Below, piece after piece: positions 13,710-37,695 of a DNA stretch of 64,000 nucleotides. Made by a program: the position numbers and the translations under genes. The notes beneath the pieces were generated by a model. That model was given only the letters and a program-made list of their open reading frames with translations, was not told where the DNA came from and made no database searches. The DNA lies in NCBI RefSeq assembly GCF_964204865.1, contig NC_135250.1, positions 8,122,001 to 8,186,000 of the forward strand, read 5' to 3'. Every line of letters starts with the position of its first letter. The stretch's first letter is position 1. The DNA comes from Styela clava (lineage: Eukaryota; Chordata; Ascidiacea; Stolidobranchia; Styelidae).

Positions 13710-16700
13710 ATGGGAAAGAAAAAGGGCAAAAAGAAGCAAGAGGAGAAGGAACCTCCAGATCCAAGAATGTTCGTCATGAAAGAAATAATATTAAACAAAG
13801 AAGATTTGAGAAAAACAGAGGAAAAGACACTCAAGAAAGCTCTTCTTCCACTCAAAAGTGAGAGCATAATATTTTTATATAAAAGACAGGAAATAGTTGT
13901 GTCTACACAGCAGAGAAACTCGACACATAGATTTCGTTGCTAATTGAGTAGTTATTCACTTTTAACGCATGTAGATCTATATTTTCTAAGGTGGTATAAT
14001 ATAGAGGTGAAGTGTTCCTTAATTACTTATCGATTTTAATCAGTAAGTATGTTGATAGGTATTTGGCTGTCTGTATGTATGTCTGTCTGTTAGATGCACG
14101 CGATATCTCACGAAAGCGAAATTGAATCTGCTCCAGATTTTGCACGTGCATTCATCATATCTCGGACCAGAAGGCTATTGATTTTGGGCGAATTATGTCG
14201 TATGATCAGCGAGTTATTAATTAATTAGTGATGGGACAAAAGGTGTCACTATGGAGTAAGAGCGCAGTTTTGGGGGATCACCTAACTTTCGATCGATAAG
14301 TCTTCGGTCTCTGACCGATATTCTCGTTTGTTATTTGTTGCTAATAATATAAATATAGAGCTCAAATTTTATAGCTGTTACGTAGAAAATGAATAGTAGG
14401 TTTCAAACAAAATCAAACTTAAATTGCTTCCAAATTATTGTGTCTCAAAAATATTGAAATATTTCAGGAGTGAACAGCAATCCTTTGATCTACGAATGGG
14501 TACCAATTTCAAAAAATATTTTTCCCGATTCGAAGAGTGTCGATTATGGATTCGAAGGAGTTGTTGATATTCCTAATCAAGTTTATTATAAAGAAGAAAT
14601 GGATGATGAAGATTTTAATTTGAACGAGCAAACAATATCTGGTATGTAGCATGATTCTGAATAGAAAATAGAAAAATGACAAAACCGTGCGGAAAAATTT
14701 TGCTTCGTATTCTATGTAGTTTTGTTATTATCTTCTTGGTCTTGATTACAACTGTAATACTTATGTATGCTAGAGATGTACCGATGTATCGGTATCGGGT
14801 ATCGGTATCGGCAATATCGGCCATTTTTTCGGTATCGGCCATGTATCGGTATCGGTTAGATTAAGGCCGATATTTCCGATATATTTACCTTTTTGATATG
14901 GTCCAGAATGTTTTAAAAGATAAGTTGGAATACTACTTTTTGATTTATTTTTTGTCTGGAGAGATCGTGAGCTATGAGCCATACATGTCCCTACCCCCGC
15001 GAGAGAATATGATTCACGTATTTTTAGCTATTTTCGCTGTCAAATTTTTATATTGACATTTTTAATATTACATAGTAATTATGAAGAAATATATCAACAC
15101 GGCACATAACAAAAAGCAATTAGGAGCCCAGTTTTAAATCATACAGTGGAATTGGGGTCCTTATTAACGGCACATGGACTTTTGGCACGGGTATAAATTC
15201 TGACTATTTGTCGTCAAGTACGAGTGTCATTTAGTCCGACGACATCGATAAACTAAATTCCGACACAATTATCCCTCTACGCAGATATTAATTTTTGTTT
15301 AACAACACAATTTCTTTATAGATATATTGACATGACCGCCTAGCCCTAGAGGGCCTAGAGTCCTAGACTGTCTCAAATATATGATAGCAATTGTATAATA
15401 ATATAAAATAGTAAAGTAAAAAAACATCCTCGACGGTTATAGGTAGGCCTTCTTTTGGTCGGTGCTGATTGATATTCTTTCATGTTGGCTTTGACTTATT
15501 GCGTCGACGATTACGATTAGCCACGAAATAAAATATTTGAAAAATGCTTTTAATTTGAACGTAGGACGGCGGCTCTAGAATGTGTGGGTGATATTCGATA
15601 TTCTTTTAAACACGAATAACGATATTCGAAGGTCGCGATATTAACATTAAATTCAAATTGGACATCCCGGCTTATGGGTTTTCTAATTGAACACCGAGAT
15701 TACTAGCGTTACTGTACAGTGTATCTTAATCAGTTGAAGCTAACACCAAACATTAATTTCATATTATGTGATATATCATTTTTCGATCTGAAATAATGTG
15801 TACTATGAACAACGCTCAAAGACCATTGTTTTAACCCGTCTGCCCTACAAAGCACACCTAATTAAGTAATATTTACATAGTATCGGTATCGGAATATCGG
15901 TAATATCGGCCTTTTTGTAGTATCGGCGTATCGGTATCGGTATCGGCTTTTTTAGCTGGTATCGGATCGGTATCGGTATCGGCGACAAAAGTGGTATCGG
16001 TACATCTCTAATGCATGCACACAATATTACACTAACTAAACCCTACAAAAGCGCAAGTGGGACTTGCACATAACACTGAATAAAAATCCGTAAAAGATTG
16101 ATCGAATAAAGTGGTTTTAGTGCATAGGTAAAGGAAGGTCCAAAATAGACGAAGTGAATAATTTAACGAAAAGGGTGGGAATCATAGAACTACTGCAATA
16201 CGGATTGCCAAACTTTGTGCATTTAAAATCACATTTTTTAAATTTCGAATCACTGTGCATCGTTGTGTGTGTTAACTTTATTATATATTCAGAAATATTT
16301 GAAAACGGCGTTGGTCTAACTACTTCACTCTCCTTTATGAAAACTAATGAAATTGACGACCGGGATCTTGACGACCTAAATAACGTTGAATCTCATGATG
16401 CACTAGATTTCTTGAAGGTGAGCCGATGTAGGCCTACTTATGAACTCTTACCATATTTTTTCTCTCTAGTAAAATCTTAACTCGTAATAATTTTTTCAGA
16501 CGAGAGTTGGTAAAGATAATATGAAAAATATAGTTGAAACAGTAAAATCACCACTTTTGGATTTGCCAAGACGAGACGATGATGATGATGATGGTGCTGG
16601 TAACTATGGCGACGAGGAAAGTGACCATTTAGAGAAAACAAAACAGACTGGTTTGTGTGCTTACTCTTTTTTCTTACATAGAAGTTAAAAGAAAGGGTAT

Positions 16701-19700
16701 AGGTAGATGGCTTGTCAACTTGTATTTTCATTATATATACAGTAAGACAGGGGTCGGCAAACTACACCATGCGGGCAATATTCGTCTCGCGAAATGGATT
16801 ATTACAATTTACCAATATTGAATAGTTAAATTTAATTTTAGGTCACAATGATAAAATAACATTCATGCTTGACATTTCTGTATGATTCTCTTTTACAATG
16901 TATGTTTGGAAACTGTTTATGTCACATATTATTGCCAATAAATCATGCAAATCGATCAATTTTTGAACGGTATGCTGAATTGCTCTTTTTTCATTCGGTT
17001 TGTCTTAAGTTTATTGGCCGTTTCGAATAAAGTAAAATCAACTTAGTTAGAGCTATGCTAATGTGGTTTTTCATATTGAGTCGAAGTTCCATTTACAAGA
17101 ACGACTTTGAAACAATCGTTCAGTGGTCGTTTTTCAGGGCAATTTAGGTCCACGGAGTTCTGCAGCAGGCTGCGGTAGGTATTCCATTTTTATTTTAAAA
17201 TAATGCATACATCGTTTTGTAGCATGAATTACAGATTTGATTTTATGAATTTGATAATTCTTTCGATGCCCGCCGTCTTTGCAATTACTCTTTTCCTTCT
17301 GGGATCACTAGTCCTAATTGGTATCGGTTTACTATAATGAAAAAGGAGTTTGAAAAACCAAAGAATCAACCGAACAACTCCCCTTTTGTTTACAGACAAT
17401 AATGGAATTGACAGCCATGATATGCGGAGGAAACTTCATAATATTTTGCAATTTTTGGTAAGTTGATATATATATATATATATATTGCCATTTTTCTATT
17501 TTTGAATTATTCTTTTTTTTAAATTGAGATATTCAGTTTAGAGTTGGTAAAAAAGGCGACGATGAAAAAAATTCCTACAGATCGGAAGCAGGACAGAATG
17601 AAGCGGGTTCGTGGTTTTATGCTTATGTTATAGTTATAGAACAATATTTTTTCATTGAAAATGATAATTTGAACTATAACGGTTTCACAGCATTACGTCA
17701 GAGTAGTCTGTTAGTAAATGCCTAGACTCGACAGAGGAGAATCTTCTATATACCCCGAAGTGTCTTGCATTTCAGCTTACCGAGCTTTTATACCAGTTGT
17801 CTAACTCTTACGTGTGTGTTCATGTATTCCCTTTACTGCCTAAAACACTGTTTACTTCATTAGTCATCCGACGCCCATCACATCTCCCCTTTTTAAAAAA
17901 TCAGCAAATTATTCTGAAACAATTGAATCCTGCTCCTGTGAAACAAGTATCTCTATATCCTAAACTTTTTGGACCGTATCCTTCTTCTCGTTCTCTCTCC
18001 AATGCAAGCTTTAAAAACACACCTCCATAGATCAGCGTTGGCGCCACGTAAAAATCATATGATATGAGACTGCAATTTGGCACCCTGTGACGATGAATGC
18101 ATTCTACTTTCTCGCTGGCTATCCTATACATATGCATTATGTGCATGGAATTTGGCATATGTCCTACTTTCACTTTTGATATATGTAACGCCTGCGGTTT
18201 TTACGCCATTTGATATTCGGAAGAAGCAAAAAAAATGACGCCAGTCGGACATTTTCTCACTCTTTTTATAGATACTGATGACACAGATACAATTGACAAT
18301 CACGACGGACGTATTAAAGTTAAATCTCACAATATGAAGCATTTTTTGAAAGTAAGTTATTGAATATATGGTAATTCTTTATCGTTCATTTCGCCTCGTT
18401 TTTATTGAATAAGCATTCGTAAGAATTTATTTAGATGAAAAAACGAAACAATATGGCGAAGTCACCTTTGAATTTACCAAAAAGTGAGGATGATGATACT
18501 AGTAGTATTGAATGTAATGACGATGAAAGTTTCAACAAACCGAAAGAAGATCAAAAAGAAATGGGTATGAGTTTTTACTGCATTCGTCGTACTGCCAAAA
18601 TTTTCTAAAAATGCCACACTTTGAATTGTGCCATCTACTTTATAATCAAACTTATGCGATATACACATGAATAGAATTTAGTAAAGTCAAACGAATTATC
18701 TTTATAACATTTCAAACAACATACTTTTTCGTGGCTCGAACCCGAGCTGACTGAGTTTTTTTTTATGTCAGTTGTCCCTGAATTTCCGAAACTCGAATTC
18801 ACTGAATTTGAGCTGAAGGGGTGTAATGAATATTCACACCTAATAGATCAGGTATAAAACATTTTGGCATTGTTCAAAATAACTGTGGAGAATGGTGGTG
18901 GACTTAAATGTACTTCGGGAAATAAAAGTAATTTTATACACAACACGCTTTGCGGTCCTCTTGCTTGAGATATCACAACCAACATATTTTTATTCATATG
19001 GCCTGCTTTTTTTGATTTGCAGAAAACCCGAACGATGGTCCGACTACCTCTTCAGCATTTATAGATACGAATGAAATTTATAGCGAAAAACGCAGTAAAA
19101 AGTCACATAATATGAAGCATTTTTTAAAGGTAAGTTAAGAAATATATGAATTTTGTTTCATTACTAAATTATCCCTAACATATTCATAAAAAAATTTAAG
19201 ATGAAAAAGAGAAACGAAGGAGATAACTTACCTACTTCAGATTTGCCAAAATGTGTCGATGATAATGATGTGAATTATAGTAATGATAGATATGATGGTG
19301 GAGAAGATGACAGAGCAGGTAACTGTTTCTCTTTTTTACTGCTTTAGTTGTACGGCAAAAAATCCCTGAAGCAATTCATTGATCTGTTATAATTCTAAGT
19401 GGATTCACTTCTTCAAGTTTTAACCAAAAATTTTTTCACATGCTAATCATATGATTCCATGTGTAACATATAATTACATTAAATATCGCACAATGACACA
19501 TAAATTCACAATTAAGAAATCACATGTTATACACAATGTGTGCTTTGAATTTGCCATTTCACATATTTAAAATTGTTTTTCATACGGCCTTCACTTTATT
19601 TGATTTGTAGGAGAACTGACCGATGACGCTCGTACAACTACCTCTTCAGCGTTTGTAGATTCGAATGAAATTGGTAGCGAAAAGCGCAGTAAAAAGTCAC

Positions 19701-22700
19701 ATAATATGAAGCATTTTTTAAAGGTAAGTTAAGAAATATATGAATTTTGTTTCATTACTAAATTATCCCCAACATATTCATAAAAAAATTTAAGATGAAA
19801 AAGAGGAACGAGAGAGATAACTTACCTACTTCAGATTTGCCAAAAAGTGTCGACGATAATGATGTGGATTATAGTAATGATAGATATGATGGTGGAGAAG
19901 ATGACAGAGCAGGTAACTGTTTCTCTTTTTTACTGCTGTAGTTGTACGGCAAAAAATCCCTGAAGCAATTCATTGATCTGTCATAATTCTAAGTGGATTC
20001 TCTTCTTTAAGTTTTCACCAAAATGTTTTTCACATGCTATTTATATGATTCCATGTGTAACATATAATTACATTGAATATCACACAATGGCACATAAATT
20101 CACATTTAGTAAATCACATGTTACACGCAATGTGTGCTTTGAATTTGACATTTCACACATTTAAAATTGTTTTTCATATGGCCTTCACTTTATTTGATTT
20201 GCAGGAGAACTGACCGATGACGCTGGTACAACTACCTCTTCAGCGTTTGTAGATTCGAATGAAATTGGCGAAAAGCGCAGTAAAAAGTCACATAATATGA
20301 AGCATTTTTTAAAGGTAAGTTAAGAAATATATGAATTTTGTTTCATTACTAAATCATCCCTAACATATTCATGAAAAAATTTAAGATGAAAAAGAGGAAC
20401 GAAAGAGATGACTCAAATACTTCAGATTTGCCAAAAAGTGTCGATGATAATGATGTGAAATATAGTAATAATGGATATGATGATAAAGAAGATGACGAAA
20501 TTCCCCCAAAACCGAATGGAATGTCAAAAAGAGCGGGTGTGTGTTTTTCTTCTTTACCGTTGTAGTTGTACGACAAAAAAATCCCTGGAGCAATTCACTG
20601 ATCTGTTATAATTCTAAGTGGACTCACTTTTCAAGTTCTAACCAAGTTTTTTTTTTCACATGATATTCACATGATTCCATGTGTAGCATATAATTGCGTT
20701 GAATATCGCACAACACTACATAAACTTCACATGTAACACACAATGTGTGCTACAACACTACATGAACTTCACATGTAACACACAATGTGTGCTTTAAATT
20801 TGCCATTTCACATATTTAAAATCGTTGTTTTTATGGACTTTATTTAATTTGCAGAAGAACCGAACGATGGCGCCGATCCATCTACCTCTTCAGCGTTTAT
20901 AAATACGAATGAAATTGATAGCGAAGGTAGCGACAAACGCAGTAAAAAGTCTCATAATATGAAGCATTTTCTGAAGGTAAAACTCAAGAATGGAATTTCT
21001 GTTTACTACTAAATTATACATCTTTCATTAAATATATAATAATGAAAAATGTTCAGATGAAAAAGAGGAACGAAACAGATAACTCATACATCTTGGATTC
21101 GCCAAAATATGTCGATGATAATGATGTGAATGGTATTAATAATAGATATGATAATAAAGAAGATGACCAAATTCCCCACAAACCGAAGGAAATGCTAAAA
21201 GGAGCGGGTGCGTGTTTCTCTTCTTTACTGTAGTAGTAGTGGTAGTAGTACGACAAAAAAATCCCCGAAGCAATTCACTTATCTGTTATAATTCTAAGTC
21301 GGTGGTCGGCAAACTTTATGTACTTGCGGGCCGAACATCCACTTTTCCGGTAGCGTGCGGGCCGCATTATATTTTGCCGATGAACAGTCGCCACATTTAC
21401 CTCCAAATTATGGCGCACTCGAACCTTCTATTGCTGTGCTAAAAGCCTGCCACAATGAGACGTGTAGATGGCCTTTTTATACTGTATATATATTATCAAA
21501 CAATACTTTGCTTTTATTTATATACTTTGATTTTATTCACCATGTGAAGGATGATGTTGTTTCTGTGTCCTGCTGGCCAAAGCTGTTGCCTCGCAGTACG
21601 TCGTCCATATGGCGATCTGACGAGCGAGTACGAAATTTATTTTTAGTGTACTTTAGACGAAGCTGCTCAATACATGTTCGAAGTGCAGATTACCCGTTTT
21701 GCACTGTCGCACAGATGAGCAGTGGCGCATCCAGGAGTTGAATTCCGTATTTGCAATGACACGTTTAACATTAAATTCCTTAATAATCGCGATGCTGACT
21801 TGGCCTATCAAGCTAACTGGTTTTGAAATGCGCAAGAAAAAACAATAGGTCGCGAGACGAGGCCGTTTATCTTTCAGTTTCGCAGCGCACATAAGGGTAC
21901 TACTCGGAAATGATGTTAAAATGTTCCCTCAAAATTTAGTAACAAACAATACCTTGTTCCCATTTTCAAAAGTCGCACGTTTTACAAGGAGACGCTTTTA
22001 CTACAAGATATATGTGCTACGATCTGTCCTATATTCTCTGCGTTTCCGGCAACATTGGACAATGATCGCAGACTCCTGCATGACGTAACAATTAAAATTT
22101 GATCAGCTGTTGGGGTGGGCAGATGAATCTCAGTTTGTACTGTCCGCTTTTGCTTTGAGTTGGGTAGTCTTTCCTTAGTCTAATTTAGTTATTATCAGTT
22201 AAGTTATGCTAAGACGGTGTTAAAAAGTATGAGTAAGGTATTAAACAGTAGTAAATCCTTACCATGTATAGCAATTTTAGTTGAGCGCTAGCTCATATAA
22301 CGTTGTTAAATAGGTACGGTGCGGTAACTCCAAGGAAGGCTAGACCTAGAAAGAAATGCCACAAACAACGATACGGTGCTTTCATGCTTGTATGGGAGGT
22401 TCATGAATAAATAAATGACGATTCTTGAATATTCAGCCGACTTATACTACTATATAGGCTACGCTACAGCATATTTGATTCAGAAAATAATGACCGATTT
22501 TTGATGCACATTTGTAAGGAAGAGGGGGAAATAACCAATTTTACGGATGTCAGTTGCTCCAAACTCATAAAATCGACAAGAATGTGGGCAGCAATGATAA
22601 GTCATGCAGGAGTTGAAAGAAATGAAGCGATTGAGAGGTGAGAAATCATGTATCAAGTTGTAGGCTGACAGTTGATGTTCTAAAAAATACAGGGCATTCC

Positions 22701-25700
22701 AGACTGTGTGATTTATCTAGATAAGTGTAGATATAGTCTAGTATGCAAACACTGCAGCACTGTAGTACATCAGATAAAATGCATTTTGTATAAGAAGTAT
22801 TAGTCAGTACTTAATGGAATTTTTATTTGTCGAAAAACACTCATGTTGTTTCGTATATGATTTTATTCCTCATTTTAGATACTGAATTCATCCCTGTTGC
22901 CTGGAACCAAATCCCATTATTCACCCACCTATTGGCCATGGATGGGTTTTTGATGATCGTGTTTTGCGGGTTATATTGTTGGATCCACTTCCAGCTCTCA
23001 TATCAGTTCTTGAGTTGGCAAACTGCAAGTGTAAGAAAAATAGGTGTCAAATAATTTCTGCGTGTGTGCCAAAAACATCCTAAATTGCACAGAATTTTTT
23101 TTGTCGACTGCAAAAACCACAGTACACTTATAGAGGAAAAGTCGATTTTTGAGAATTCATAGGAAAGTGAAATAGATATTGGAGTTAATTTATTGAATAT
23201 TATTTTTTTTCAGACATCTGTTATTGTCGGAAGTCCTGTTTCTAAAATAATATTGCCTTTGATTCAAATACACAACCACATAAACTGAAAAAAGACTAAT
23301 TGTAATATTTCTGTTCACTGTGTTATGAACATACTGTATTCAAATTAGTTTTATTGACGTTTTCGGTAAATTTCTCACTGAGAAATAACCGATTAATTTG
23401 TGTTTTTGTGCTCACTACGTTAATCTGTGACTTTATTGTCTAAAAATAAATGCGTTTGATGGCTCCTATTAAATAAATTCAACTTCTTATGCTGTTCTTT
23501 GTTGTAAACTGCTTGTCTGGGGAAGTCTGATTTTGGTCAGACGAAACGTTACAGAAATACATTTGTGTTAGTGTGCAGCAGGGCTTTTGAATTGCATAGT
23601 TCTTATGTTGTGTTGTTGTGAACCTATGGTTATTGATTTTCCGGGGAATCCCCAATTTTGCATCAAGATTTTAACCGATTTACTTGTGTTTTTATGCTCA
23701 CGGTGTTAATTTGTGACTTCAACGCATAAAATTGATGCGTTTGATGGCTTCTATAAAATGAAAGCAATTTTTCATGCTGTATCGTTGTACACCTATGATT
23801 ATTGATTTTCGTGGAATCCCCTAATATTCAATTTTTGCATCGGGATTCTTGAAGCATGTTTTACAGAAAATGTGCAGCTTTCGATAGTGAACAAGCTATG
23901 ATGCGTTCAGTATGTTCATTTTCATACAAAACTAAAGAATTTATATATATAAATTATAGTCCCCACTCCCAGATGTGCACTACGAAACTCACTTTCCAGG
24001 CGTTTTTCAGGGCCTCGTCTCACGGACTACAAGATTTTTTCTTTTAAGCATTTTGGAATGGTCGACCCTCGTCGCAAACTTCCCTCCATTTTCCAGACAT
24101 TTCTAAATTTTGAAAATCATAAATAAACTTAACTTACAATTACAACCATCGATGGGACGTTCATCAAGTACACGATTTACAACTAACGCTACTTGCTACA
24201 AAACAAGCACATGTACAGCAGAACTCGTTACCACATAAAGGATAGGATAGGATTTACATATTTATCCCGGGGGAGAGGAAAGCCGATAAGACGGCTTATC
24301 CATATGGCGAACCACGGCCTCTCGTCCGGTTACCATTCCAAGTCGGGTATGGGATTAGATTTACTGTATTGTTTGTTTTCGGAAGCATGGACTTGGTGGT
24401 GGAGGAAGCCGTAACCGACCAGCGGTTACGTGAACCACCCAACGACGGCGAGGAGTCCAGCAATCCTTTCGCACATAACCATCTCTGCATGGGATTCGAA
24501 CCTGCGAACCCACGTAGAGTAGTTGGAGGTGCGGTGGCGAGCGTATTCCTAACGCTTAGCCCGTTGAGCCACATCGCCGCGCCATGTGGAGACGATACAT
24601 ATAGGATAAGTTTTTGTTTTATGCATTGAAGTCGTTCGGGGGCTGCAAAAAATTAGTTTGCGGGCGCAGTTTGCCGACCCTTGTTCTAAGTAGACTCACT
24701 TCTTTAAGTTTTAACCAAAAAAATTTTCACATGCTATTCCAATGATTCCATGTGTAACATATATTTACATTAAATATCACACAATGACACATAAATTAAC
24801 ATTTAATAAATCACATGTTATACGCAATGTGTGCTTTGACTTTGCCATTTCACACATTTAAAATTGTTGTTTACATGGACTTTAATTGATTTGCAGAAGA
24901 ACCGAACGATGACGCCGATCAGTCTACCTCTTCAGCGTTTATAAATACGAATGAAATTGATAGCGAAGGTAGCGACAAACGCATTAAAAAATCTCATAAT
25001 ATGAAGCATTTTTTGAAGGTAAAACTCAAGAATGGAATTTTTGCTCACTACTAAATTATACATCTTTCATTAAATATATGTTCATAAAAAATTTTAAGAT
25101 GAAAAAGTGGAACGAAAGAGATGATTCACCTATCTTGGATTTGCCGCCAAAAAATCTCGATGATGGTGATGTAAATGATGAACCGAAAGTTGGTGCCGAT
25201 CCAACTACCTCTTCAGCATTTATGGATACGAATAAAATTGATAGCAGCGGTATCGACAAGCGCAGTAAAAAGTCTCATAATATGAAGCATTTTTTGAAGG
25301 TTAAACTCAAAATGGAGTTTTTGTTCACTATTAAATTATTCTATTTTTATTGAATATATATTTATAAAACTTTTCAAGATGGAAAAGAGGAGCAAAAGGG
25401 CTGATTCAGAGGAAACAAAGAATGGCACCAGTTCTGCATTTCCCGACTCGATTATGACTACCAATGAAATTGATAGTGATGGCATTGACAAGCGAAAAAA
25501 AGTCAAATCTCATAATATGAAGCATTTTTTGAAAGTGCGTTGAGAAATATAGAGAAAAGTTTTTATCGCTTACATACATATCCTTGTCGGTATTAAATTT
25601 ATACTCGAAATTCTTGTTTAGATGAAAAATAGAAATAAAATGGTCAAACCACCAAATATTTATGATGAAGACGACGATAGTTTACACAAACCGAAATCAA

Positions 25701-28700
25701 AGCTTAAAAAATCTGGTGTGTGTTTATTTTGTATTGCTCACGAAGTGCACGAAATGTATGGTTTTGCTGTATTGCCGTTATTGGTATGATTGTTGTTGTT
25801 TAGATGCATTTGCACTTTCCTTAGCAGCTAATAACCAATCGATTTCAAATTTTCAGTACAATAAATGAAAGAAAGTTTTCAAATTGAGTCCTGAGAGGAC
25901 CTGATATTTTACCAAAAATGTGCCGTTTCATTTAATTTAAAGGTGAATACGCCTACAAAATTGCATATGAAATATACAATATGCAGTATAAAATAACTAA
26001 AATAGGCATATATTACCAGATTACTATATGTTAAAATAGGAAAGCATATATTTATCCCTCACTCTGGCATTTGATATTCAGTACGACAAAAATCCGATGT
26101 CAGTTCAACAACTTTTCTCTCTTTTACGGATATTAATGAAATTGACAACAGCCACAAAGTCGGCAAAAATCTTATCAAAGTTAAAAAGCACAAGATGATT
26201 CATTTCCTAAAGGTAAGTTAATGGAGTCAGTCTGCATTTGCAAATATTTGTTCGAATAAAATAGACAGAAGAACATGACCTCGGAGGTGCAACAAGTTGA
26301 AAATGCTTAATCTGGACATCCACACACTTATAACTTCGCTTTACATCAGTCTGCTATTAATGGACTTTTTACACGAACGTTCAATTGTTGGGCAAGCTTA
26401 TATTAATGTGTACAAGTACATTGTGTATGGAATTTTGGGCATCTTGAATGATGTATCTATAGTCCATTATAGACTCTTACACTCTTCAAAAGGTACTCCC
26501 GTAGTATGCGTACCAGGTTAGGTTTGAGCATTATTTTATTCCGATTTCCTTTTTTTTTTGTTCTATTACGAGTTGCTGGGACTGTCTGTGTTAGCCAAGT
26601 GAATACAACTCATGCCCATAGTAATCAGTCTCCGTACACAACTTGATGTAAAGTATAGGCGAACAAAATTAGTTACCTCCATATTGGTACACACACTTCT
26701 GGAGCGTCCCTCAAAACACTGCGCGTTTATTTATATATTTCCATATATCAAATAGATAGCTAATCAACTTCGTTGCCAAAATGACTAAGGTAGATAGTCT
26801 TTCTTTCAGAATTTACCAAAAAGAATGGATGATAATGATGATGCAGATGACAGTAGTGGTTCTGACGATATCTATTACAGTGAATATGGCGATTCTAGCG
26901 ATGACGAGGAAAGTTTACGCAAAAAGAAAACAAAGCAAGAAATAGCACGTGCGAATTTATCCTTTTCTAGTATTAGGCTCAATTCGATTGGTTGGAAGAA
27001 GTTGCTAAAAGGATATTTATTACTTTTATTAAAGTCCGATATTTCACACCAAATTTAGCTTATATGCCAGTTCATGGACATTCGGTACAATTATTTTATA
27101 ATTCCATTGACATTCTTGACATAGTCTGATCGTATGTGCCAAGACTGTGAAACATGGTAGTAATATGTACAATATACACAGTTTTTTCCCCTTTTTGTTC
27201 CTATCCTTTGCTCTCTAATTCTGTTTATTTATCTTTGAAATTTTGTTTTTTTTTTATTTTATTTTTTCAATTTTCTTCTAGGTTATTAATGATCCATATC
27301 CAGCCCACATAGGATGAAGTTTGCCGACCCCTGATTTATTTTCATTTAGTAGTTAGATTTTTTAGTGCTATTATATCACTGTATTTCATTATTTGATCAT
27401 ACTTTCACAGTTCGTCGCTGTCGGATTTGTACACTTATTATATTCATGTTACTGATTCTACTCATTGGAACTCTCGTTGGTTTAGTATTTGCAGGTACGT
27501 GTACGTTGATAAGTCCAGCCCAGGCTCATATAAAGGGTGGCCTAGTGGAAGATTATCTTCTATAGACTACGAGCAAGACATCGGATGGTAAAGCTGTGGA
27601 ATCGGAATTTTATCAATATTGGAGTCGGGGATTTTCCTTCAATTAAATTTCCGAAGTCGGAGTCGCAGAAGCAGTTTTGAATTTGTCAAAATTTCAGACT
27701 TAATAATGATCAAAGTCCAAATTTTCGTCGATAAATGATAAAAATTAAATTGACTAAGCTTTTATCACGGCTAATTAGAGAGGACTTACACACGCTAAAT
27801 ATTTTGTGCTCAGATTTGTTTTCCTGTGGGGGGCTATGAGTTGAAATTTTAATCCATTGACAGGCCTCTTTATGTCATTTGTCCTATATATATATATACA
27901 TATATAAGCAATGCTCTCTTCTTCTAGGTATTCAAATTCCTTTCCTGACTGACCTTATATTCCCACCCACAGCTGAAGTTTCGAATATCCGTAACTTTAC
28001 AACCTCGATAGTAAGTAAACTATTGGTTTATAATAAAATTGTATTTATATACAGTTTGTATTTTGACTTCAACTCATTATACAAACATTTCGCAGCTTAA
28101 ATACGAGTTCAAACTTGTGGAAAATAAAATTCATTTCCCGGACCAATTCGCGTTAGCACTGAATCATTTTCTACAACGGCATCACATAATACAACGTTCT
28201 AATCTATTGTATTGACAGGGAAATGTCACCACGATTGCAGGCTTCACCACAGCCAGTGCGTCCGATAATACGACTTTTACATTACCTAGTGCCTTGACAA
28301 GTACTAGTACGACTACAACCTTGTCTAGTACGACTAGTACCTCGACAAGTGCTAATACAACTAGCACGACTACAATCTTGCCTAGTACCTCGACAAGCGC
28401 TAGTACAACTAGCACGACAACAGCCTTGCCTAGTAAGACTAGTACCTCTACGAAGGCTGGTACAGCAAGTACGACTACAACCATGGCTAGTACTACTACC
28501 ACAACTGAAAGCTTTGTCGGTGCTGGATCGGGAATAAATTCTGGGCAGGCTGTCCCCTCCGGAGAAGCGGAAATTGCTATAATTCATGCAGACATGTACA
28601 AAATTAACGATAAACCTGTCAATACTTCATGGGAATATGTTTGGCCTCCGAATCACCGAAGGGGAAAGATGGTTGAAAACATGGTAACTCAATTTTTTTT

Positions 28701-30404
28701 TCTGTTATTCGGTATTGAGTCCATGGACATGTTGATGGTGGACGCCGTAACCGGTAAGCGGTTACGTGAACCACCACACGACGACGAAGAGTCTAACAAT
28801 CTTCTTTGTACAGAACTATCCTCAAAAATGTCGACAAAAATTTCATCAAGTTGGCTAAGCTTTCTGAACAGACAATTAAAAAAGGCTTTTACAAGCTAAA
28901 GTTATTGTCTTTAGAATTTGGTTTGCCGGATTTGGATTTTCTTCGAAATGGGATTCGGAGTCTTTTTTCCCACTCAACCAGGATTCGGGAAACAGAGAAG
29001 GACTCATTTTTAAATGGTCTGGAGTCGAAGTTGAGTGTAAATTTTCAATGACTCCACAACCCCGTGTCGTTAAGCTCATAGTAATGCAAATGGTTATACA
29101 TAAAAATTACCACCAATCCGCGTGTGACTCGCATATCTACAGTGTGCCAGGACTTGATACAAACAAGTTATGATTTGGCACAATTTTATGAATTGGTTTA
29201 TAACCGTGGACAAAAATTTTCTATTCTGTATCTGATGAATTCTCTCGTTAGATCAGAATCTATAAATGTTTTTCATATGTTTTTTTTAGTTTTTTGCTGC
29301 TTACACATATCTTGGATTCACACTTGACGTGGTTATATGTGATATTTTACGTCCGGAGGAACGCGGTGCTTGGCGGGTAGGTAGTAGAGAAATTTACATT
29401 TATTGGTTATATTTAATATATTTTCAGCAGCAACTGTATAAAAACGTGATTAACGTAAAATTTCACATGATTCACCGAAAAAATTAGTTTGCTCCGAGGG
29501 TAGACTTGGGGTTGGAGTCAAAAATTTGCCAACCCGAATCTGGTGTTCGTTTTTGTATCACGTGGAAATTACAATTTAACTGATTTTTTTTTAATTAATC
29601 ACTTTTATTAAGTAGGTTGTTATGAATATTTAATATGTATAGAGACTTGAAACTGTTTTACCATTTTTTATGTTTGAGAAGTAACTGTTTCCTTGTTATT
29701 ATATTTTATACAGATTCTGGTACGAGTGTTTGGAAAACCGAGATATAATTTAGATATTATGAAATGGTACGGTTTCGATCGTAAGTTATCTATAGAGTTG
29801 TACTCAAAATATATAAGAAGAATGGAGAGATATGCTGAAAATGTATTACTTTCTCAACAAAACGCAAAAGTCAAATATCTTTTCAGTCACGGTAGGTTAT
29901 ATTATTCTGCTTGTATTTTAGATTTTGTGCTTCATGACAATGAATCAATGTCTTGCTGTTGGTTTTAATAGCCATTGCCACTCTTAAAGTAAAAAAGTTA
30001 TTGCTTTAAGGAGCGCTGGCCTTGCATTGAGCGTTTAATATAAATTACCACTGCTTGGCTTTCACGAGGGAAAATAATCCATAGGTAATGCAATGATTTT
30101 GTATGATACTTTATATGGCAGTGGTTCCTAAGTTTTTTCGATTCGTTCCTTCATTCACCTATTTTTAAGCTCTTTATCTACCAGTCCTTCGTTCTATGCA
30201 TGAAAATTCGGTGTACGTTAACTGTTAAATAATTAATGCTAGTGACACACGCCACTGTTACTTTGTTATATTACTATTTCAGTCGGTCATACTTTTGCTG
30301 TGGAAGTTCCAAAGTACTTCGACAAGGTTGGGATTCGTCGTCCACCTTCCCATATACCAGCTGCATGGAGCGATTGTTTTGAATCTCCCGTTTGTGATTA
30401 CTAG
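13710..30404 (+). CDS. Gene A: repeat-expanded type II membrane protein (28 coding exons)
   Basis: Coding exons: 13710-13857, 14468-14641, 16293-16417, 16500-16650, 17396-17457, 17537-17606, 18272-18351, 18435-18564, 19023-19129, 19201-19318, 19611-19723, 19795-19912, 20205-20314, 20386-20536, 20855-20976, 21057-21207, 24897-25018, 25099-25299, 25379-25534, 25622-25715, 26082-26212, 26810-26948, 27411-27494, 27928-28010, 28219-28683, 29290-29376, 29714-29891, 30283-30404. The sum is 3792 nt, or 1263 aa; every junction keeps phase. Layout: Lys-rich N-terminus (MGKKKGKKK), ~11 cytoplasmic repeats (about 108-924) ending KSHNMKHFLK, one TM segment (about 930-950) preceded by RRCR, a Ser/Thr-rich stalk (about 985-1060), then a conserved ectodomain with WEYVWPP, NLDIMKWYGFD and terminal WSDCFESPVCDY. 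Basic residues before the TM and sequons after it imply type II topology. The family is not recognised. The donor at 26948 is uncertain (26970 also fits phase). Confidence 0.8.
14771..16010. mobile_element. Non-autonomous hAT element in gene A intron 2
   Basis: The ends are perfect inverted repeats of tagagatgtaccgat. The flanking 8-mers are atgtatgc (14763-14770) and atgcatgc (16011-16018), a 7/8 target duplication typical of hAT elements. Both subterminal regions are packed with tatcgg/ccgata repeats, likely transposase-binding arrays. No transposase ORF is visible, so it would need an enzyme from elsewhere. Confidence 0.85.
16747..16790 (+). mobile_element. Solo hAT terminus
   Basis: The sequence caggggtcggcaaactacac matches the terminal repeat type of the larger element at 21300-24683. 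No partner end was found nearby, so this is probably a truncated copy inside a gene A intron. Confidence 0.4.
18772..18851 (+). pseudogene. Possible relic or mutually exclusive gene A exon
   Basis: An acceptor (tttatgtcag) and a donor (cag|gtataa) bracket an open stretch encoding VPEFPKLEFTEFELKGC and onward in phase 1->0. Its phases match those of exon 19023-19129, so the two could substitute for each other but could not both be used without a frameshift. The protein lacks the SHNMKHFLK signature of the other units. Confidence 0.3.
22470..23250 (+). pseudogene. Decayed exons of a mobile-element-associated Cys-rich ORF
   Basis: Segment 22470-22637 has an acceptor (gctacag) and donor (ag|gtgaga) and reads FDSENNDRFLMHICKEEGEI, then TNFTDVSCSKL. 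Further on, after frame breaks, come WPWMGF (near 22935) and DPLPALISVLELANCKCKKN (near 22980-23040). The remnant ends near 23217 with CYCRKSCF and a stop. The order W-x-W, a DPxPA stretch, then CxCKK and CxCRK clusters is one I associate with a repetitive family of uncharacterised metazoan proteins often found in mobile DNA. The assignment is from memory of the pattern only. Stops and frame shifts make it non-functional. Confidence 0.35.
24237..24587 (-). repeat. tRNA-derived SINE, full-length copy 1
   Basis: On the minus strand the head contains an A-box-like tggctcaacggg (24560-24571) and a perfect B box ggttcgaatcc (24492-24502), the RNA polymerase III promoter of tRNA genes. A unique body follows, ending at a short (aggat)n-type tail near 24240. 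Related copies at 28693-28812 and 35908-36214 share the body strings gccgtaaccg and ggttacgtgaaccacc. It sits inside the hAT insertion, so it is younger than that insertion or was carried by it. Confidence 0.8.
26492..26710 (+). repeat. ~220-bp MITE-like repeat, copy 2
   Basis: This is the same family as 13086-13300 and in the same orientation, lying in the intron between gene A exons 26082-26212 and 26810-26948. The ends ggtactcccgtagtatgcgt and ggtacacacacttctggagc are imperfect inverted repeats. Confidence 0.7.
27300..27336 (-). mobile_element. Solo hAT terminus
   Basis: The reverse complement begins caggggtcggcaaacttcat, the same terminal type as the 21300-24683 element. It lies just upstream of the transmembrane exon of gene A. 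No opposite end was found. Confidence 0.4.
28290..28500 (+). repeat. 48-bp coding minisatellite (mucin-like stalk of gene A)
   Basis: Within exon 28219-28683 a 16-codon unit repeats imperfectly, as in STSTSANTTSTTTILP followed by STSTSASTTSTTTALP. The encoded segment is nearly all Ser and Thr with some N-glycosylation sequons, as in a heavily O-glycosylated stalk. The matching exon of gene B (35612-35821) has only a nine-residue linker here. Confidence 0.85.
28693..28812 (-). repeat. SINE fragment, copy 2
   Basis: This is a body fragment of the SINE family (gacgccgtaaccggtaagcg and following) without the tRNA-like head. It lies in the gene A intron after exon 28219-28683. Gene B carries a SINE of the same orientation in the homologous intron. 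Confidence 0.65.
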
Positions 30405-31440: not shown

Positions 31441-31448
31441 CGCTGATC

Positions 31449-32045
31449 CAGGGTTTCCCAAACTGGGGTACGTTGACGTGACGACTACATAGGGGGTCCG
31501 CAGCGATGTTGAGTTTGAAATATATACATTTAACGCATATCCACTGTTACAAGGACATTTATAATCGTAAATGGTAGTTGTTACGAGACCTCAATAATGG
31601 GAGGGGAAAAAATTGTTGTAGGTGGACAATCGTTGCTTTCAGGGTCTGTGAGGTAGATCTCGGCCACAGAGCTACATTTTGGGTAATAATTGGTTGAATG
31701 CGTTATTGAGTTATCACCAGTCGAGAATTTGTGCGATTTTGCCAAGGTCATTTGAGCCCCGTTGATGCAGGAAAGATGCGTGAAACCCAGTTAGGTTAAT
31801 TGAGAGAGACTATCCAAGTATACATTATTATTAGTTCGTTGTTGTAGAGTTGGGCATACGAGTTTGCTTGTCAGAAATTGATCCGACACATTAATGTCGT
31901 TTGTGTTGATGTATTTTAAATCCAAAATGAAACATTATCCCTCTCCCTTGGTTACGCACATAAATTGGTATATATAGGATGGGGGTCCGTAAAAAATAAT
32001 ATCCACAAATAGGTTTCCGCGGCAGAAAAAGTTTGGGTTACACGA
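31449..32045. mobile_element. hAT-type MITE remnant upstream of gene B
   Basis: The left end reads cagggtttcccaaactgggg, a common hAT terminus. The right side has an inverted aaaagtttgggttacac near 32028-32044. A ggggtccg motif follows the left end and recurs near the right end. No transposase and no clean target duplication are visible. The remaining 32046-32670 up to gene B shows nothing recognisable. Confidence 0.45.
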
Positions 32046-32670
32046 TTACATTTTTAGGTGCCTCTCTTTTACAATTTTAAACTTGTCCAATACATTAGTC
32101 TTCAAATTGCCAGGCCTAAAAAATTGATTGATCTTCTAGACTAGAAATTCACGCTGAAGAAGTCCACGATTTGTAAGGGAACAAATTGTACATAATATCC
32201 CAGTAGTAGGGTGATAAAAAAATCTGGCATCGTTGTTTATACTTCAAATTCTGGAATATTATGATAAAACAATGCATATTTATGCGAATGCGTAACCTGG
32301 CGAGTGGAGGACTACTGGTCACATCTCAATAATTTTATCATACAAGGAATTTCTACAAAAGGATTATCCACATTACCCTTTAATTACTGCATTTCGCTAT
32401 TGTAGTTGGAAATACATGGATTTTGCTTCCATCAAACAAGGAAAAGATTTCACTGACGCGAATCAACATTACGATAACGTTAAGTTATAGGCTTACGGCA
32501 TCCTACAAACTGTAGCCTAACTGCTTCTATAAGCTTGCCAGGTCAGTTATGTTTTATTAATTTTAGATAAATAAAAAGTCAGTCTCGACAGACTGAGGCT
32601 TCGTCATTTTTTTTTCAAACATCTTTCGTTCTTGCTCAGGTAGAATCGCGCTTCTATACCTAGACTAATT

Positions 32671-35600
32671 ATGGCCAAGAAAAAGGGGAAAAAGCAGAAA
32701 GGCGAAGAAGAACCACCAGATCCGAGATTATCAGCAATGAAAACAATAATATCGAAGGAAACGAACACCAGAAAGGAAGGAGAAATCACGCGCAATAAGG
32801 CCATGATGCCACTCAAAAGTAACAAAATTACCACTTCCATCGTAACTGGGTGTTCGGGGTGGACTGATAGGATAGCTGTATAAAAGAATTATAAGTTACA
32901 GGGTTATCTTGTAATCGAAATTGGGTTTGTCGTAAATAATCGTTTCAACAGTATGCTGCTAATCAATGGTTACACGAATTTTCAAATTTTCTTGGCTAGG
33001 ACTATAGTAACCTTTAATAAATACTGCCATTGTTTCCATGCTAAAAGGCGAATGTTTAAAAATTAAAAAAATTAAAAAATAATAAATGCTTTTTAAACTG
33101 GTTTTCATGTAAAATTTTGATGCAATTTTCACCAAAGTATTTCAATGAAACATTAAAGATATTTGAAAAAATCCCTCATTTTTTAAGCAGTTTGTTCTAG
33201 TTTCGTCTTTTTTGGTTAAAGCCCCGAATAGTATTCGCAATATTACAATTATGGACTGATATCATTTCAATATTCAATTAAAAACACCTCGTCAAATTTT
33301 CGTTATTTTTTTGTAAGTGTGGCTGTTGTAAAAAAAAACTTAGAAACAGACAGGTTTCCGATATAAAAATATATATCAATTAAATCGTAATTTATTGCCT
33401 TCTTTAGGAGTTAACAGCAATCCTTTGATCTAATTTATTGCCTTCTTTAGGAGTTAACAGCAATCCTTTGATCTACGAAATGATACCAATTGCAAAAAGT
33501 CTTTTTCCGAATTCAAAGAGTGTCGATTTTGGATTTGAAGGTGTACTAGACATTCCAAATCAAGTTTATTATAAAGAGGAAATGGATGATGTGACTATCA
33601 GCGTTGGAGACCTACCACCACTTAGTAAGTACAGTATATATATTAAATCGAAAATTACCGGTAAATAAAGAAAATGCGTCTTCAGTATTGGAGGTATTAC
33701 AATTCTTTTGAATAGAATTTTCTTTCCTGACATTAGGGTGGCCATGTTAGTTAACCTTCGTGTCTGAATATTTGAGCAATATTCTCTTGTTATATCTAGA
33801 ATATTTTACTTTTGCACGCTACGTAATTATTTTGTTTCACATTTTTTAATTTCAGACATGAAAAAAGGAGCCAATTTAAAAACTTCTCTCTCTTTTTTGA
33901 ATAGTACTGAAATTGACAGCCGTGACCTTGACCAGCTTGATAAAGTTGAATCTCATGATTCGATGCATTTCTTGAAGGCAAGTTACAGCTAGGGGAGTGT
34001 AAACTTTTTCCCTTTTTTTCATTCTCTCGTTTTATACTTTTTAGCGCGGTTTCTCTCATTCTCCTCTTCCTGCTTCTTTCTCATATTTCAGTTCTTTTAT
34101 TTTTTTATTGAATTTTTTTTGTACACCTATTCATTTAGACCAGAGTTGGTAAAGAAAATTTTGAAAATATACTTGAAACTTACAAGTCACCTCTTGTGGA
34201 TATACAAAAAAGGGCATCTGACGACGGCGGTTTTGGAAACACCGAAACTTTTAAAAGAACGGGTATGTAATAAATACACAAGACTCGACTGCGTTTTTTA
34301 GTTTATTTCTATTATTTCGGAACCAACTACGCTAAGCAGCAGCATTTGGCATTCGAAAAATAATATTGTCAAATATTTTTCATAAAGTTTATCATTTCAC
34401 AATGAAATGTTACAATTCCAGGCAAAATTTATTTCTCCCATTTTCAGGCTTGTCCATGGAACAAGCCTGTAAATGAGAGAATTGAGTTTCAAAGTTACAA
34501 TCCGTTTAATACATATCTGCTTTATATTTTGTGAATTTTTTTTCAGCCCGTTGCTGTCGATTGTTGATTCTTATTGTTTTCTTATTACTTATACTAATTT
34601 GTGGAACTTTGATTGGTTTGGTATTTGCAGGTAAGTAGATTTCCTTCATTTATCATAGCATTTAACTGGGTAATTGTTGAATATTTTTGCGAATCGTCTC
34701 GAACCTTCGTTTCGAAATGGGTTCTCACTAAAAAGTTATTCAAACATATGAAACCCTATATATATATATATACAAGAACCCGAATCTTTTGTTATCCAAT
34801 ATATTACATCACTGGTATGATGTTTAGACCTGTGCTAATATAGTCGGGTTTTTTGCACATACCGCAAAAGACTTTTGGGGCGCTCATAATTAAATTGGAT
34901 GAGTGTGTGATGTAAATTACGATAAGCGTATAATTTATCGAAAAGTTTCATCTCAGCTTCAAATAAATTTCAGGTATTCCGATTCCCTATTTAAGCGACC
35001 TCGTATTTCCTCCAGAACCAGTATCCAATATTACCGACACAACTACAATAGTAAGTACGATTATTCTCTTGACTGCTACATTACAACTGCAATTCTTTTA
35101 TATAATAACACTACACTGAGTGTCCATTTTTCGTTTTATCTTTAAATTATCTTGTACGATTAAAAAATGATGTCTATGATCCGCTGAAAAATTCATTTTT
35201 TTTTTTATATATTTTATCCTTAGCTCATATCATGAACCCCTCATATGCAGTATTTCATAGTTGTTTTCAAAAGTTTAATCCGAAAAAGGCTATGTAGGCT
35301 AATTTTTTTCCTTTTCTTGGATGCTGCTTTTCAAATTGGGGAGAAAATGCATAATATTCATATATATATCTTGACGAAAAATAGATAATCACAATGAAAG
35401 TTCAAACTCTATGTAAAATGGTTTCATACTAATGAAAACTTGGGCTGGTAGTGCGATGAAAATATTTTTCAAATTTTTTTTTTTTTGATGCAGTTTGCGT
35501 AGTTCTCGTATATGACTGATTTGGTCGATCGAAAATTTTAAAGGTTTTGAAAAGTTTTTTCTGTATAACGCTACACGTTACACACACTACTTCCTGATTA

Positions 35601-37695
35601 AATATATACAGGCGAATGTTGTCGAAAGCACAACTCCACTACCCGAAAGCTATATTGGTGTTGGTTCAGGTATTAATTCGGGTCAGCTGTTTTTCGTGGC
35701 TGAAACAGAACTTTTCGTAATACAAGCAAATGTTTTCAAAATTAACAATAAAGCAGTCGATCTATCTTGGGAATATGTTTGGCCGCCCGAACATTCAAAG
35801 TCGAAGTTGCTAGAAAATGTGGTAAGCAAGAATTTACGCACTCGATGAAAAATGGAATAGTTCATGTTTATTCATTGTAGCATTTAGATTCGAGTATGCT
35901 CTCGTTAGGATAGGAGAAGGATTTACATATTTATTCCTTGGAATGAAAAGCCGATAAATCGACTCAATATGGCGAACCACTGCTTCTGTCTGGTTACCTG
36001 TTCACGTCGGGTATGGGAGTCGTGAACCAGTTATTTGTTTGGGATGCGTGGAATAAGCCGTAAACGACCATCGTTAAATCACCCAATGACTGTCATCTAT
36101 TATTACACCCAATGGAATTCAAACCTGTAAAGCCGCACAATCAGAGGCTGCATGGCTGATGGCTTGCATGTTCCTGATCCTTAGCAAGATATGCCAACCG
36201 GCGAGCCGAGTCTCAGGAAGTCGGTTGCTAATAAATTGTCGACACGTGTTTAATTCCAGAATTTAGTGTCTTGCCGTTCATATCGATTAGAATATAGTCA
36301 TACCTTGGGCGCTCTAGAAGTGTGTATACCACTATGGAGGTGACTAACTAAGTAGTCTTGTTCGTCTACTTTACATTAAGTTGAGAAACCTATGGGCAGG
36401 GGGTATATTCACTTGGCTAACACAGACAATCGTAATAGAACTCGTAATGGAACTAAATTAAGGAAAATCGGATTGGCCTAACTCTAACCTGGTACACACA
36501 CTATATACGGGAGTATCCATTCCTTGTACTATAAATAGTCCTTAGGCGCAAATTGCGTGTTCATACTCAATTATTATTCTCGTACATTTTCAGTTTATTG
36601 ATGTTTACGACTATCTTGGATATAAAATCGACATTGTCACAGTTGATGACATAAATCCAGGTGGCAGCTCTTGGAAAGTAAGTAACCTAGTTTTCTTTGT
36701 TCTCGTCAATTAACATAGTCATTCTCTCTTTTCATCAAACCAAGGAAAAACGCGTGGATAGCCAAGGTTGACTAAGATTTTGACACTCGACTCAAGGGTT
36801 CAATCTAATTTCATCATCAAGACTTGTGTGATTGTGTTTACGTAAATGGGGAACAGAAACATATAGTTCGTTTCGCGTAAACCTAAAGCATAGTTCGCAC
36901 AATGCAAGAGAGTAAATATGATTCCCATGATTTAAAACAATGTAGATAAATGTTGGTTGAAATATCGGGTCCCGCAGGACACATGGAAACTAAAAGTAAA
37001 ATTGATAGCGACTTCTTCTGTCATTACTATTTTTTTTTCTCAAAATTAAAAACCCTATGTGACTAATTTACTGTCTAACTGTAACTAAATACTGATATAT
37101 TTGTATTATGTTAAAGTATTTAATTGTGCAGTTGAATACTATTTTGAACTATTTTCCTCGTGATAAATAGGTTCAGGTGCGGCCGTTTGGACGACCAAAA
37201 TATAATTTAGACATTATGAAATGGTACGGATTTGACTACAAAGGGCCGGAAACGCAAGACGAAGACTATCTAGAAAAAACTACAAAATATGTTGAACAAG
37301 TATTTCTTTCTCAACAAAATGCAAAAGTTGAATATAATGCGGTTCACAGTGAGTTTTTTGTCTTCCACACGATAAAAACGTAGCAGGTTTCTCTTTAATC
37401 ATTAAAAAAATCAAGGCGAAATATACAACATTGGTTCGTTCGAATATTTTGCTGATAATAAATTGAAAGTCAAAAGAAACACAAGATAGTTTTTACTACG
37501 TTGTCATTATTGAGATAGTATATCTTTTATATAACTAACTTCTGACATGACATGGAAAAAAATTCAATTTTAGTCGGACGTAGTTTTATCGAGAATGTGC
37601 CAAAGTACATCAATAAAGTTGGGATTCGTCGTCCACCTTCTCATATACCAGCTGAATGGAGCGATTGTTCAGAATCTCCAACTTGTGACAAGTGA
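32671..37695 (+). CDS. Gene B: type II membrane protein paralog of gene A (10 coding exons)
   Basis: Coding exons: 32671-32818, 33451-33624, 33856-33977, 34139-34262, 34547-34630, 34974-35050, 35612-35821, 36594-36677, 37171-37348, 37574-37695. The total is 1323 nt, or 440 aa. Each exon aligns with one in gene A with identical intron phases. Residues 1-49 are Lys-rich (MAKKKGKKQK), and 50-107 carry VNSNPLIYE and DIPNQVYYKEEMDD, shared with A. Residues 108-189 hold a single copy of the unit that is repeated in A. A TM segment spans about 194-216 after RCCR. The ectodomain (about 217-440) has an NIT sequon, WEYVWPP, NLDIMKWYGFD, GIRRPPSHIPA and WSDCSESPTCDK. Intron 3 uses a GC donor (aag|gcaagt). 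Exon 2 has a duplicated acceptor. B probably represents the ancestral architecture. The function is not known; a cell-surface role is inferred from topology only. Confidence 0.85.
33389..33474 (+). repeat. 43-bp tandem duplication of an acceptor and exon start in gene B
   Basis: The 43-bp block 33389-33431, which holds the acceptor ttctttag and the first 24 bases of exon 2, is repeated exactly at 33432-33474. The downstream acceptor gives the full exon aligned to gene A. Using the upstream one reads VNSNPLI and then TAA, so it would truncate the protein. Confidence 0.95.
35908..36214 (-). repeat. tRNA-derived SINE, copy 3
   Basis: This is a diverged but near full-length relative of the 24237-24587 SINE, in intron 7 of gene B. 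It shares the tail (aggataggagaaggatttac), the body (ggcgaaccactgcttctgtc) and a degraded B box (ggtttgaattcc on the minus strand, near 36116-36127). Confidence 0.7.
36307..36517 (-). repeat. ~220-bp MITE-like repeat, copy 3 (inverted)
   Basis: This is the reverse complement of the family at 13086-13300 and 26492-26710, lying right after the SINE in gene B intron 7. It contains ggctaacacagacaatcg and taactaagtagtcttgttcg, which match the other copies in reverse. Confidence 0.7.

What the first reader, a model, noticed from the sequence alone, without database searches (positions are those of the whole stretch)
13710..37695. Tandem paralogs of an unrecognised type II membrane protein family, one with an 11-fold cytoplasmic exon-pair expansion
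Genes A and B share every exon boundary and phase outside the repeat zone. B carries one copy of a (1->0)+(0->1) exon pair, while A carries about 11. The result is a 440-aa and a 1263-aa protein with the same N-terminus, TM segment and ectodomain. I recognise no known family in the ectodomain motifs (WEYVWPP, NLDIMKWYGFD, WSDCxESPxCD).
Basis: partly seen in the sequence, partly recalled or inferred. Interest (0 to 1): 0.8.

Follow-up and report, generated by a model that had tools for sequence, protein, structure and literature searches.

The report
Sea squirt membrane-protein pair, expanded tail
Two neighbouring sea-squirt genes encode related membrane proteins of no recognised family, and in one of them the inner tail is about five times longer because a two-exon block, present once in its neighbour, occurs eleven times.

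Summary
Gene A (28 exons, 13710-30404, 1263 aa) and gene B (10 exons, 32671-37695, 440 aa) read as described, with matching phases outside the repeat zone. The first repeat exon occurs 11 times in A and once in B; two later exons are fusions, so the zone has 20 exons. A/B dN/dS is 0.20-0.45 in six regions, supporting coding. In the host genome all matches to four query pieces lie in these two genes (capped candidate lists). Cellulose-synthase and GH6 exons side by side point to a tunicate (hallmark recalled). Pfam and PDB sequence searches gave nothing credible. My SEA-domain guess failed; TNF is not matched. In copies 2-11 the exon junction lies in a basic core (net +5 to +7) with mostly acidic flanks; copy 1 and B's copy lack this. 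Inferred, not shown: a type II surface receptor whose tail makes multivalent electrostatic contacts, tunable by unit number; near-neutral expansion is about as likely. Gene B has a duplicated splice acceptor; the upstream one would truncate it. No transcripts, relatives from other species or structure were obtained. Modestly interesting.

The parts
13710..30404 (+). Gene A: 28 coding exons, 1263 aa, type II membrane protein by its features
   Evidence: exon chain, phases; dN/dS against B; topology features
13710..14641 (+). Gene A exons 1-2: Lys-rich N-terminus and conserved cytoplasmic region (69% identical to B over 96 aa)
   Evidence: exon 2 matches one place each in A and B in the genome
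16293..26948 (+). Gene A repeat zone: 11 copies of the exon pair (1->0)+(0->1) in 20 exons (3-22), residues 108-925
21290..24690 (+). Most of intron 16 of gene A: dispersed repetitive DNA inside the array
   Evidence: 179 matches over many contigs (5036 first-look candidates, 40 scored)
27411..27494 (+). Gene A exon 23: transmembrane segment with juxtamembrane RRCRIC
28219..28509 (+). Gene A: 97-aa Thr/Ser-rich (mucin-like) stalk at the start of exon 25, absent from B
28510..30404 (+). Gene A exons 25 (end) to 28: ectodomain (WEYVWPP, NLDIMKWYGFD, WSDCFESPVCD)
32671..37695 (+). Gene B: 10 coding exons, 440 aa, same architecture with one exon pair
33388..33475 (+). Perfect 43-bp tandem duplication holding gene B's exon 2 splice acceptor twice; the upstream one gives a stop after 57 aa
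33856..34262 (+). Gene B exons 3-4: the single exon pair; its first exon groups with A's copy 1
34547..34630 (+). Gene B exon 5: transmembrane segment with juxtamembrane RCC
35645..37695 (+). Gene B exons 7 (end) to 10: ectodomain

Best explanation
SHOWN: two tandem paralogous genes encode single-pass proteins with type II features, belonging to no family found here, with a conserved small ectodomain and a conserved cytoplasmic start. In A the short region between these was multiplied by tandem duplication of a frame-neutral two-exon unit with its introns. The result is a tail of about 925 aa (B: about 190) in which 10 of 11 copies carry a basic core (KKSHNMKHFLKMKKRN or a relative of it, net +5 to +7) next to mostly acidic flanks. 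A also has a 97-aa Thr/Ser stalk that B lacks. INFERRED: the protein sits in the plasma membrane. The ectodomain binds something outside the cell. In A the repeated basic cores act as similar, weak docking sites for an acidic partner (another A tail, acidic lipids or a scaffold), so that unit number sets the strength of clustering or anchoring. B is the short form with a related ectodomain but little of this activity. Because the units are frame-neutral and some neighbours are nearly identical, unit number could differ between individuals (unequal crossing-over) or between transcripts (skipping of pairs).
For: Exon chain and phases. dN/dS below 1 between A and B in six of six regions, and low dN/dS in exon a (0.16-0.64 in 8 of 8 copy pairs computed) against looser exon b (0.20-1.27 in 8 pairs); the basic core begins in exon a. 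Core net charge +5 to +7 in 10 of 11 A copies, -1 in A copy 1, +1 in B; head acidic in 10 of 11, b-tail acidic in 9 of 11. Charge segregation of the array exceeds 2000 of 2000 residue shuffles at three window sizes and 1000 of 1000 unit-wise shuffles. The middle of the array arose by duplication with introns: introns 9/11/13 are 96-99% identical, introns 10/12 are 93%, and copies 4-6 have a period of 594 and 591 bp. Within a pair introns are 71-87 nt in 10 of 11 cases; between pairs they are 292-3689 nt in 8 of 8. Precedent for repeated charge blocks driving condensation: Ki-67 repeat domains (PMC9106583, abstract and outline seen).
Against: No transcript, protein, structure or relative from another species was available. 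The five single units tested on their own (1, 4, 5, 7, 8) are not significantly charge-segregated (127-338 of 2000 shuffles reach the value), so part of the array's signal is one weak pattern repeated. The pattern is absent from copy 1 and from B (B's tail: 111, 400 and 946 of 2000 shuffles). Cell-surface location, disorder of the tail and ligand binding are assumed. No known docking motif stood out in the simple scan.
Confidence: 0.35

Rival explanations
1. The long tail is a near-neutral by-product: slippage and unequal crossing-over multiplied a frame-neutral region that tolerates length change, and the extra copies do nothing beyond adding length.
For: Copies differ in length, two have fused exons, and some b-tails are lost (b9 keeps ten residues). 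dN/dS of exon b is 0.66-1.27 in 6 of 8 pairs. B does without the array.
Against: Exon a stays under constraint (0.16-0.64 in 8 pairs), and FLK at its end is kept in 11 of 12 first exons (copy 2 ends in QFL). The array keeps the frame throughout.
Confidence: 0.35
2. The exon pairs are cassettes: alternative splicing skips whole pairs so that gene A makes a ladder of tail lengths.
For: A whole pair is a 1->1 unit of length divisible by three, while its single exons are not. Introns inside pairs are 71-87 nt in 10 of 11 pairs, and introns between pairs are 292-3689 nt in 8 of 8.
Against: No RNA data. The geometry follows from duplication of one unit and need not mean skipping. Pair 11 has a 597-nt inner intron, and pairs 8-10 share fused exons.
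Confidence: 0.15
3. The ectodomain is a very diverged SEA domain (my own guess from the pattern of strands and helices I imagined, the stalk and the type II topology).
For: A stalk followed by a small domain after a type II TM is the layout of some SEA proteins (recalled). The only hhalign segment lies in the register I had guessed.
Against: hhalign probability 0.2. HMM scores lie inside shuffles (187 of 617 reported A shuffles and 413 of 734 reported B shuffles score as high); hhalign local 25 of 200 and global 185 of 200 column shuffles as high. Pfam silent while its SEA model scores 100.4 bits on a control. A lacks the GS of the GSVVV cleavage motif.
Confidence: 0.1
4. The ectodomain is a diverged TNF-like ligand domain (TNF ligands are type II, recalled; tunicates have many).
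For: Topology and size. The tunicate TNF superfamily is large, with many tandem duplicates (PMC12843592; start of abstract and passages seen).
Against: Pfam silent up to E 10, although the same model finds 4 matches elsewhere in this genome and none here.
Confidence: 0.04
5. Gene A's array is an assembly artefact, or B is becoming a pseudogene.
For: Near-identical neighbouring units (copies 5 and 6 share 98% of exon a). A perfect 43-bp duplication gives B a decoy acceptor leading to a stop after 57 aa.
Against: Most copies differ at many sites, repetitive DNA sits between copies 7 and 8, and the contig is 32.7 Mb long. B's frame is otherwise open, and dN/dS against A is below 1.
Confidence: 0.06

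Closest known systems
Ki-67 disordered repeat domains
   Same: Repeated units with alternating charge blocks; there blockiness drives condensation (PMC9106583, abstract and outline seen).
   Different: Nucleolar/chromosome-periphery protein, blocks created by mitotic phosphorylation; no sequence relation tested or implied.
Ascidian sperm Tast proteases (Ciona)
   Same: Tunicate single-pass type II membrane proteins, four of the five in contiguous genes (PMC9265791, one passage seen).
   Different: Astacin-like proteases with thrombospondin repeats; no such Pfam family is found in A or B.
Abalone VERL
   Same: 22 tandem repeats, partly homogenised by concerted evolution (PMC9265791, one passage seen).
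   Different: Egg-coat repeats of 153 aa related to ZP-N domains; here the repeats lie on the presumed cytoplasmic side and are highly charged.
Type II SEA proteins (TMPRSS11 group) and SEA mucins
   Same: Stalk and small membrane-near ectodomain (layout only, recalled).
   Different: No SEA sequence signal.
TNF superfamily ligands
   Same: Type II topology (recalled); expanded by tandem duplication in tunicates (PMC12843592, passages).
   Different: No TNF-domain signal although the model finds other loci in this genome.

Membership tests
Single-pass type II membrane proteins | One TM segment, no N-terminal signal sequence, cytoplasmic N-terminus | tested here: met
   sequence features only: one hydrophobic peak (A from residue 933, mean 3.11; B from 197, 3.23; next distant peaks 1.53 and 1.34). 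Arg and Cys on the N side; sequons and (A) Thr/Ser stalk on the C side. Topology itself is not measured.
SEA domain (PF01390) | Match to the SEA profile | tested here: not met
   (a control SEA domain scores 100.4 bits).
SEA domain (PF01390) | GSVVV-type autoproteolysis site | tested here: not met
   Alignment: B has GGSSWK, A has RGAWR at the guessed place. Not every SEA domain cleaves (recalled).
SEA domain (PF01390) | Ferredoxin-like alpha/beta sandwich | not testable with these tools
   Structure prediction accepted no jobs, and spliced proteins fall outside its stated rule.
TNF superfamily | C-terminal TNF homology domain | tested here: not met
   silent; one search finds the family elsewhere in the genome, 4 matches, none at this locus.
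Ascidian Tast-type sperm proteins | Astacin protease and TSP1 domains | tested here: not met
   no such Pfam family.
Tandem internal exon-repeat expansion (general kind) | In-frame head-to-tail duplication of exons with their introns | tested here: met

The most novel reading that the evidence does not exclude
Gene A is a length-tunable receptor: frame-neutral exon pairs, skippable or copy-number variable, set the number of basic docking sites in the cytoplasmic tail of an unrecognised tunicate surface protein, so that clustering strength is encoded as a repeat count, while its tandem partner B is the fixed single-unit form.
Probability: 0.12. Interest if true: 0.6.

Novelty: new member of a known kind. 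Interest (0 to 1): 0.33.

Why it matters
It appears to be a membrane-protein family with no recognised domain, seen in two forms that differ mainly in a repeated, charged cytoplasmic tail and a stalk. That is a ready-made natural comparison of one unit against eleven for asking whether tail valency changes what a membrane protein does. Otherwise it is an example of a familiar process, tandem duplication of frame-neutral exons.

Tried and rejected
SEA-domain idea: profile-profile, HMM with shuffles and Pfam with a control were all negative. Three SEA exons of the same genome (C9) were read and added to the profile without a positive result. Read by eye, the intron in the L008 SEA domain is phase 2, after GSVIV and two bases of the next codon; in A and B the intron near the guessed site is phase 0, so it does not coincide.

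TNF idea: negative, while the model finds other loci in the genome. Pfam hits of A's first 466 residues to polyomavirus T antigen C-terminus (E 0.0017, residues 47-210), Peptidase_M43, SNaCT13 and SPT2_N, of B to Betaherpes_U91, and of A's remaining repeat zone to Fervidolysin_SD2 (E 0.18) all lie below the curated cut-offs; the first 107 residues alone gave none. NCBIfam gave B one hit far below its cut-off. PDB hits for the ectodomain (E 1.2), the N-terminus (E 0.11) and the repeat exon (E 2 and worse) were discarded as chance.

Relatives: viral contigs and prokaryote genome contigs gave none (74 and 104 pattern matches, 0 confirmed), as expected for an animal gene. A phage tblastn gave none. 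FFAT-like reading of the SSAF[IV]DTNE motif: 7 loose matches in A's tail, 1 in B; the fourth position varies among D, N and K, so I did not adopt it. Ciona spliced leader 16-mer (recalled): 2 genome matches against 1 for the control, so no help in naming the host. Papers: nine searches; none of the listings that I saw points to this gene pair, and the peptide WEYVWPP is in no held paper. The bacterial promoter/terminator scan is not informative here.
Full report
WHAT IS THERE. Gene A runs from 13710 to 30404 in 28 coding exons and gives 1263 aa; gene B runs from 32671 to 37695 in 10 exons and gives 440 aa. Of 36 introns, 35 are GT-AG and one (B intron 3) is GC-AG. The eight exons outside the repeat zone correspond one to one in phase and nearly in length, except the stalk exon (465 against 210 nt). 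AATAAA or ATTAAA motifs follow both stop codons. The two proteins are 69% identical over the first 96 residues and 55% over the ectodomain.

INDEPENDENT SUPPORT FOR CODING. Nei-Gojobori dN/dS between A and B is 0.22 for the N-terminus, 0.42 for exon pair 1, 0.20 for the TM region, 0.40 for the ectodomain, 0.38 for its core and 0.45 for the C-tail. These are short segments and the values are rough, but all six lie below 1.

THE ARRAY. A profile of the first exon of the pair, built from the 12 copies, finds those 12 in the six-frame window, 11 in A and 1 in B, and no more above threshold. Exon 18 joins b8 to a9 and exon 19 joins b9 to a10, so the zone has 20 exons. The middle copies arose by duplication of exons with their introns: introns 9, 11 and 13 are 96-99% identical, introns 10 and 12 are 93%, and copies 4-6 repeat at 594 and 591 bp. 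A 3.4-kb stretch of dispersed repetitive DNA sits between copies 7 and 8 (intron 16, 179 matches from 40 scored of 5036 candidates). Pairs 1-7, exons 17-20 together and pair 11 each keep the frame.

AGE. Neighbouring copies 4-9 differ by dS 0.05-0.28 in exon a. The same measure between A and B is 0.36-1.12 over six regions, with 0.87 for the N-terminus and 0.83 for the whole ectodomain, so the core of the array looks younger than the A/B split, although the gap to the lowest region (C-tail, 0.36) is small and gene conversion could lower the values. The tree places B's copy with A's copy 1 (support 0.86). A copy 1 shares 73% of exon-a DNA with B but only 54-58% with the other A copies, and B's copy is slightly closer to the others (59-64%) than A copy 1 is. 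So the first divergence of units may predate the A/B split with loss in B, or the new copies evolved fast. With a single B copy the tree cannot be rooted to decide this.

HOST AND GENOME-WIDE COPY NUMBER. The host assembly has 376.6 Mb in 379 contigs. It holds a glycosyl hydrolase 6 exon about 2 kb from an exon with cellulose-synthase and family-2 glycosyltransferase matches on the same strand. A fused cellulose synthase/GH6 gene in an animal is a tunicate hallmark (recalled); that the two lie in one gene was not tested. In that genome the last 127 aa of B match 5 places at E up to 1e-3, the exon-2 region 2 places at E up to 10, the repeat unit 13 places at E up to 1 and the first part of the ectodomain 3 places at E up to 10. 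All 23 lie in A and B. The tool scores only its best candidates, and remote relatives could be missed.

TOPOLOGY. Each protein has one strong hydrophobic segment (A from residue 933, B from 197), no hydrophobic N-terminus, Arg and Cys residues on the N side of the TM, and N-glycosylation sequons (five in A, one in B) and, in A, a 97-aa stalk of 43% Thr and 22% Ser on the C side. This favours a type II orientation; it was not measured.

FAMILY. Pfam up to E 10 gives no match for the ectodomain or for the first 107 residues alone and only matches below curated cut-offs for the rest, with both proteins covered in pieces. NCBIfam, searched with B only, gives one match far below its cut-off. PDB by sequence gives nothing credible. 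My SEA guess was tested and failed: hhalign probability 0.2; HMM scores within shuffles (187 of 617 and 413 of 734 reported shuffles as high) and hhalign local and global scores within column shuffles (25 and 185 of 200 as high); the Pfam SEA model recognises a control domain at 100.4 bits. TNF is also not matched, although that model finds four places elsewhere in the genome. A diverged member of a known fold is not excluded, because profile power with two sequences is low and no structure could be predicted.

HOW IT MIGHT WORK. In copies 2-11 the exon-pair junction lies in a basic core of 18 residues with net charge +5 to +7, whereas copy 1 has -1 and B's copy +1. The preceding segment is acidic in 10 of 11 copies and the following one in 9 of 11. 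The whole array is more charge-segregated than 2000 of 2000 residue shuffles and 1000 of 1000 unit-wise shuffles; B's tail is not (111 to 946 of 2000 shuffles as high). Five single units tested alone are not significant (127-338 of 2000). Repeated charge blocks are reported to drive condensation in Ki-67 (PMC9106583, abstract and outline). I therefore favour A's tail as a multivalent electrostatic docking or clustering device on a surface receptor, and B as its short counterpart. This is inference; a near-neutral expansion is about as likely. The frame-neutral pairs, with introns of 71-87 nt inside 10 of 11 pairs and 292-3689 nt between pairs, would also permit skipping of whole pairs, but nothing here shows that it happens.

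CAVEAT ON GENE B. The acceptor of B exon 2 lies in a perfect 43-bp tandem duplication (33388-33475). Splicing to the upstream copy would meet a stop after 57 aa; splicing to the downstream copy gives the full frame. Which is used is unknown.

VERDICT. The thing is an orphan gene pair, by the libraries searched here, with a vivid but ordinary-in-kind internal exon expansion. Interest is modest until expression, relatives or a structure are known.

Noticed in passing
33388-33475: Perfect 43-bp tandem duplication doubling gene B's exon 2 acceptor; the upstream acceptor leads to an in-frame stop after 57 aa.
   Followed up: yes
21290-24690: Dispersed repetitive DNA in intron 16 of gene A; 179 genome matches from 40 scored of 5036 candidates.
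   Followed up: partly
2333-2979 and 4802-6034: Tandem arrays of 319 bp (2 copies, 99%) and 290 bp (4.3 copies, 97%) upstream of gene A.
   Followed up: no
13170-13247 and 26578-26655: A 78-nt element shared at 86% between the region upstream of A and an intron of A; similar letters, apparently inverted, lie near 36340-36530 (by eye).
   Followed up: no
38583-39437 (-): Methyltransferase-domain reading frame, apparently in a single exon (Methyltransf_11, E 8.8e-21), downstream of gene B.
   Followed up: partly
44153-58613 (+): Reading frames around a C2H2 zinc-finger exon (57257-57694), perhaps one gene; the finger sequence looks like GLI (recalled).
   Followed up: no
G000 C9:105207-114250 (L008-L010): Three SEA-domain exons with GS(V/I)I-type cleavage motifs and a Thr/Ser-rich stretch nearby, perhaps a mucin-like gene with SEA repeats.
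   Followed up: partly
L013 (G000 C9:16170500-16180400): A cellulose-synthase-like exon followed by a glycosyl hydrolase 6 exon on the same strand, pointing to a tunicate host.
   Followed up: yes
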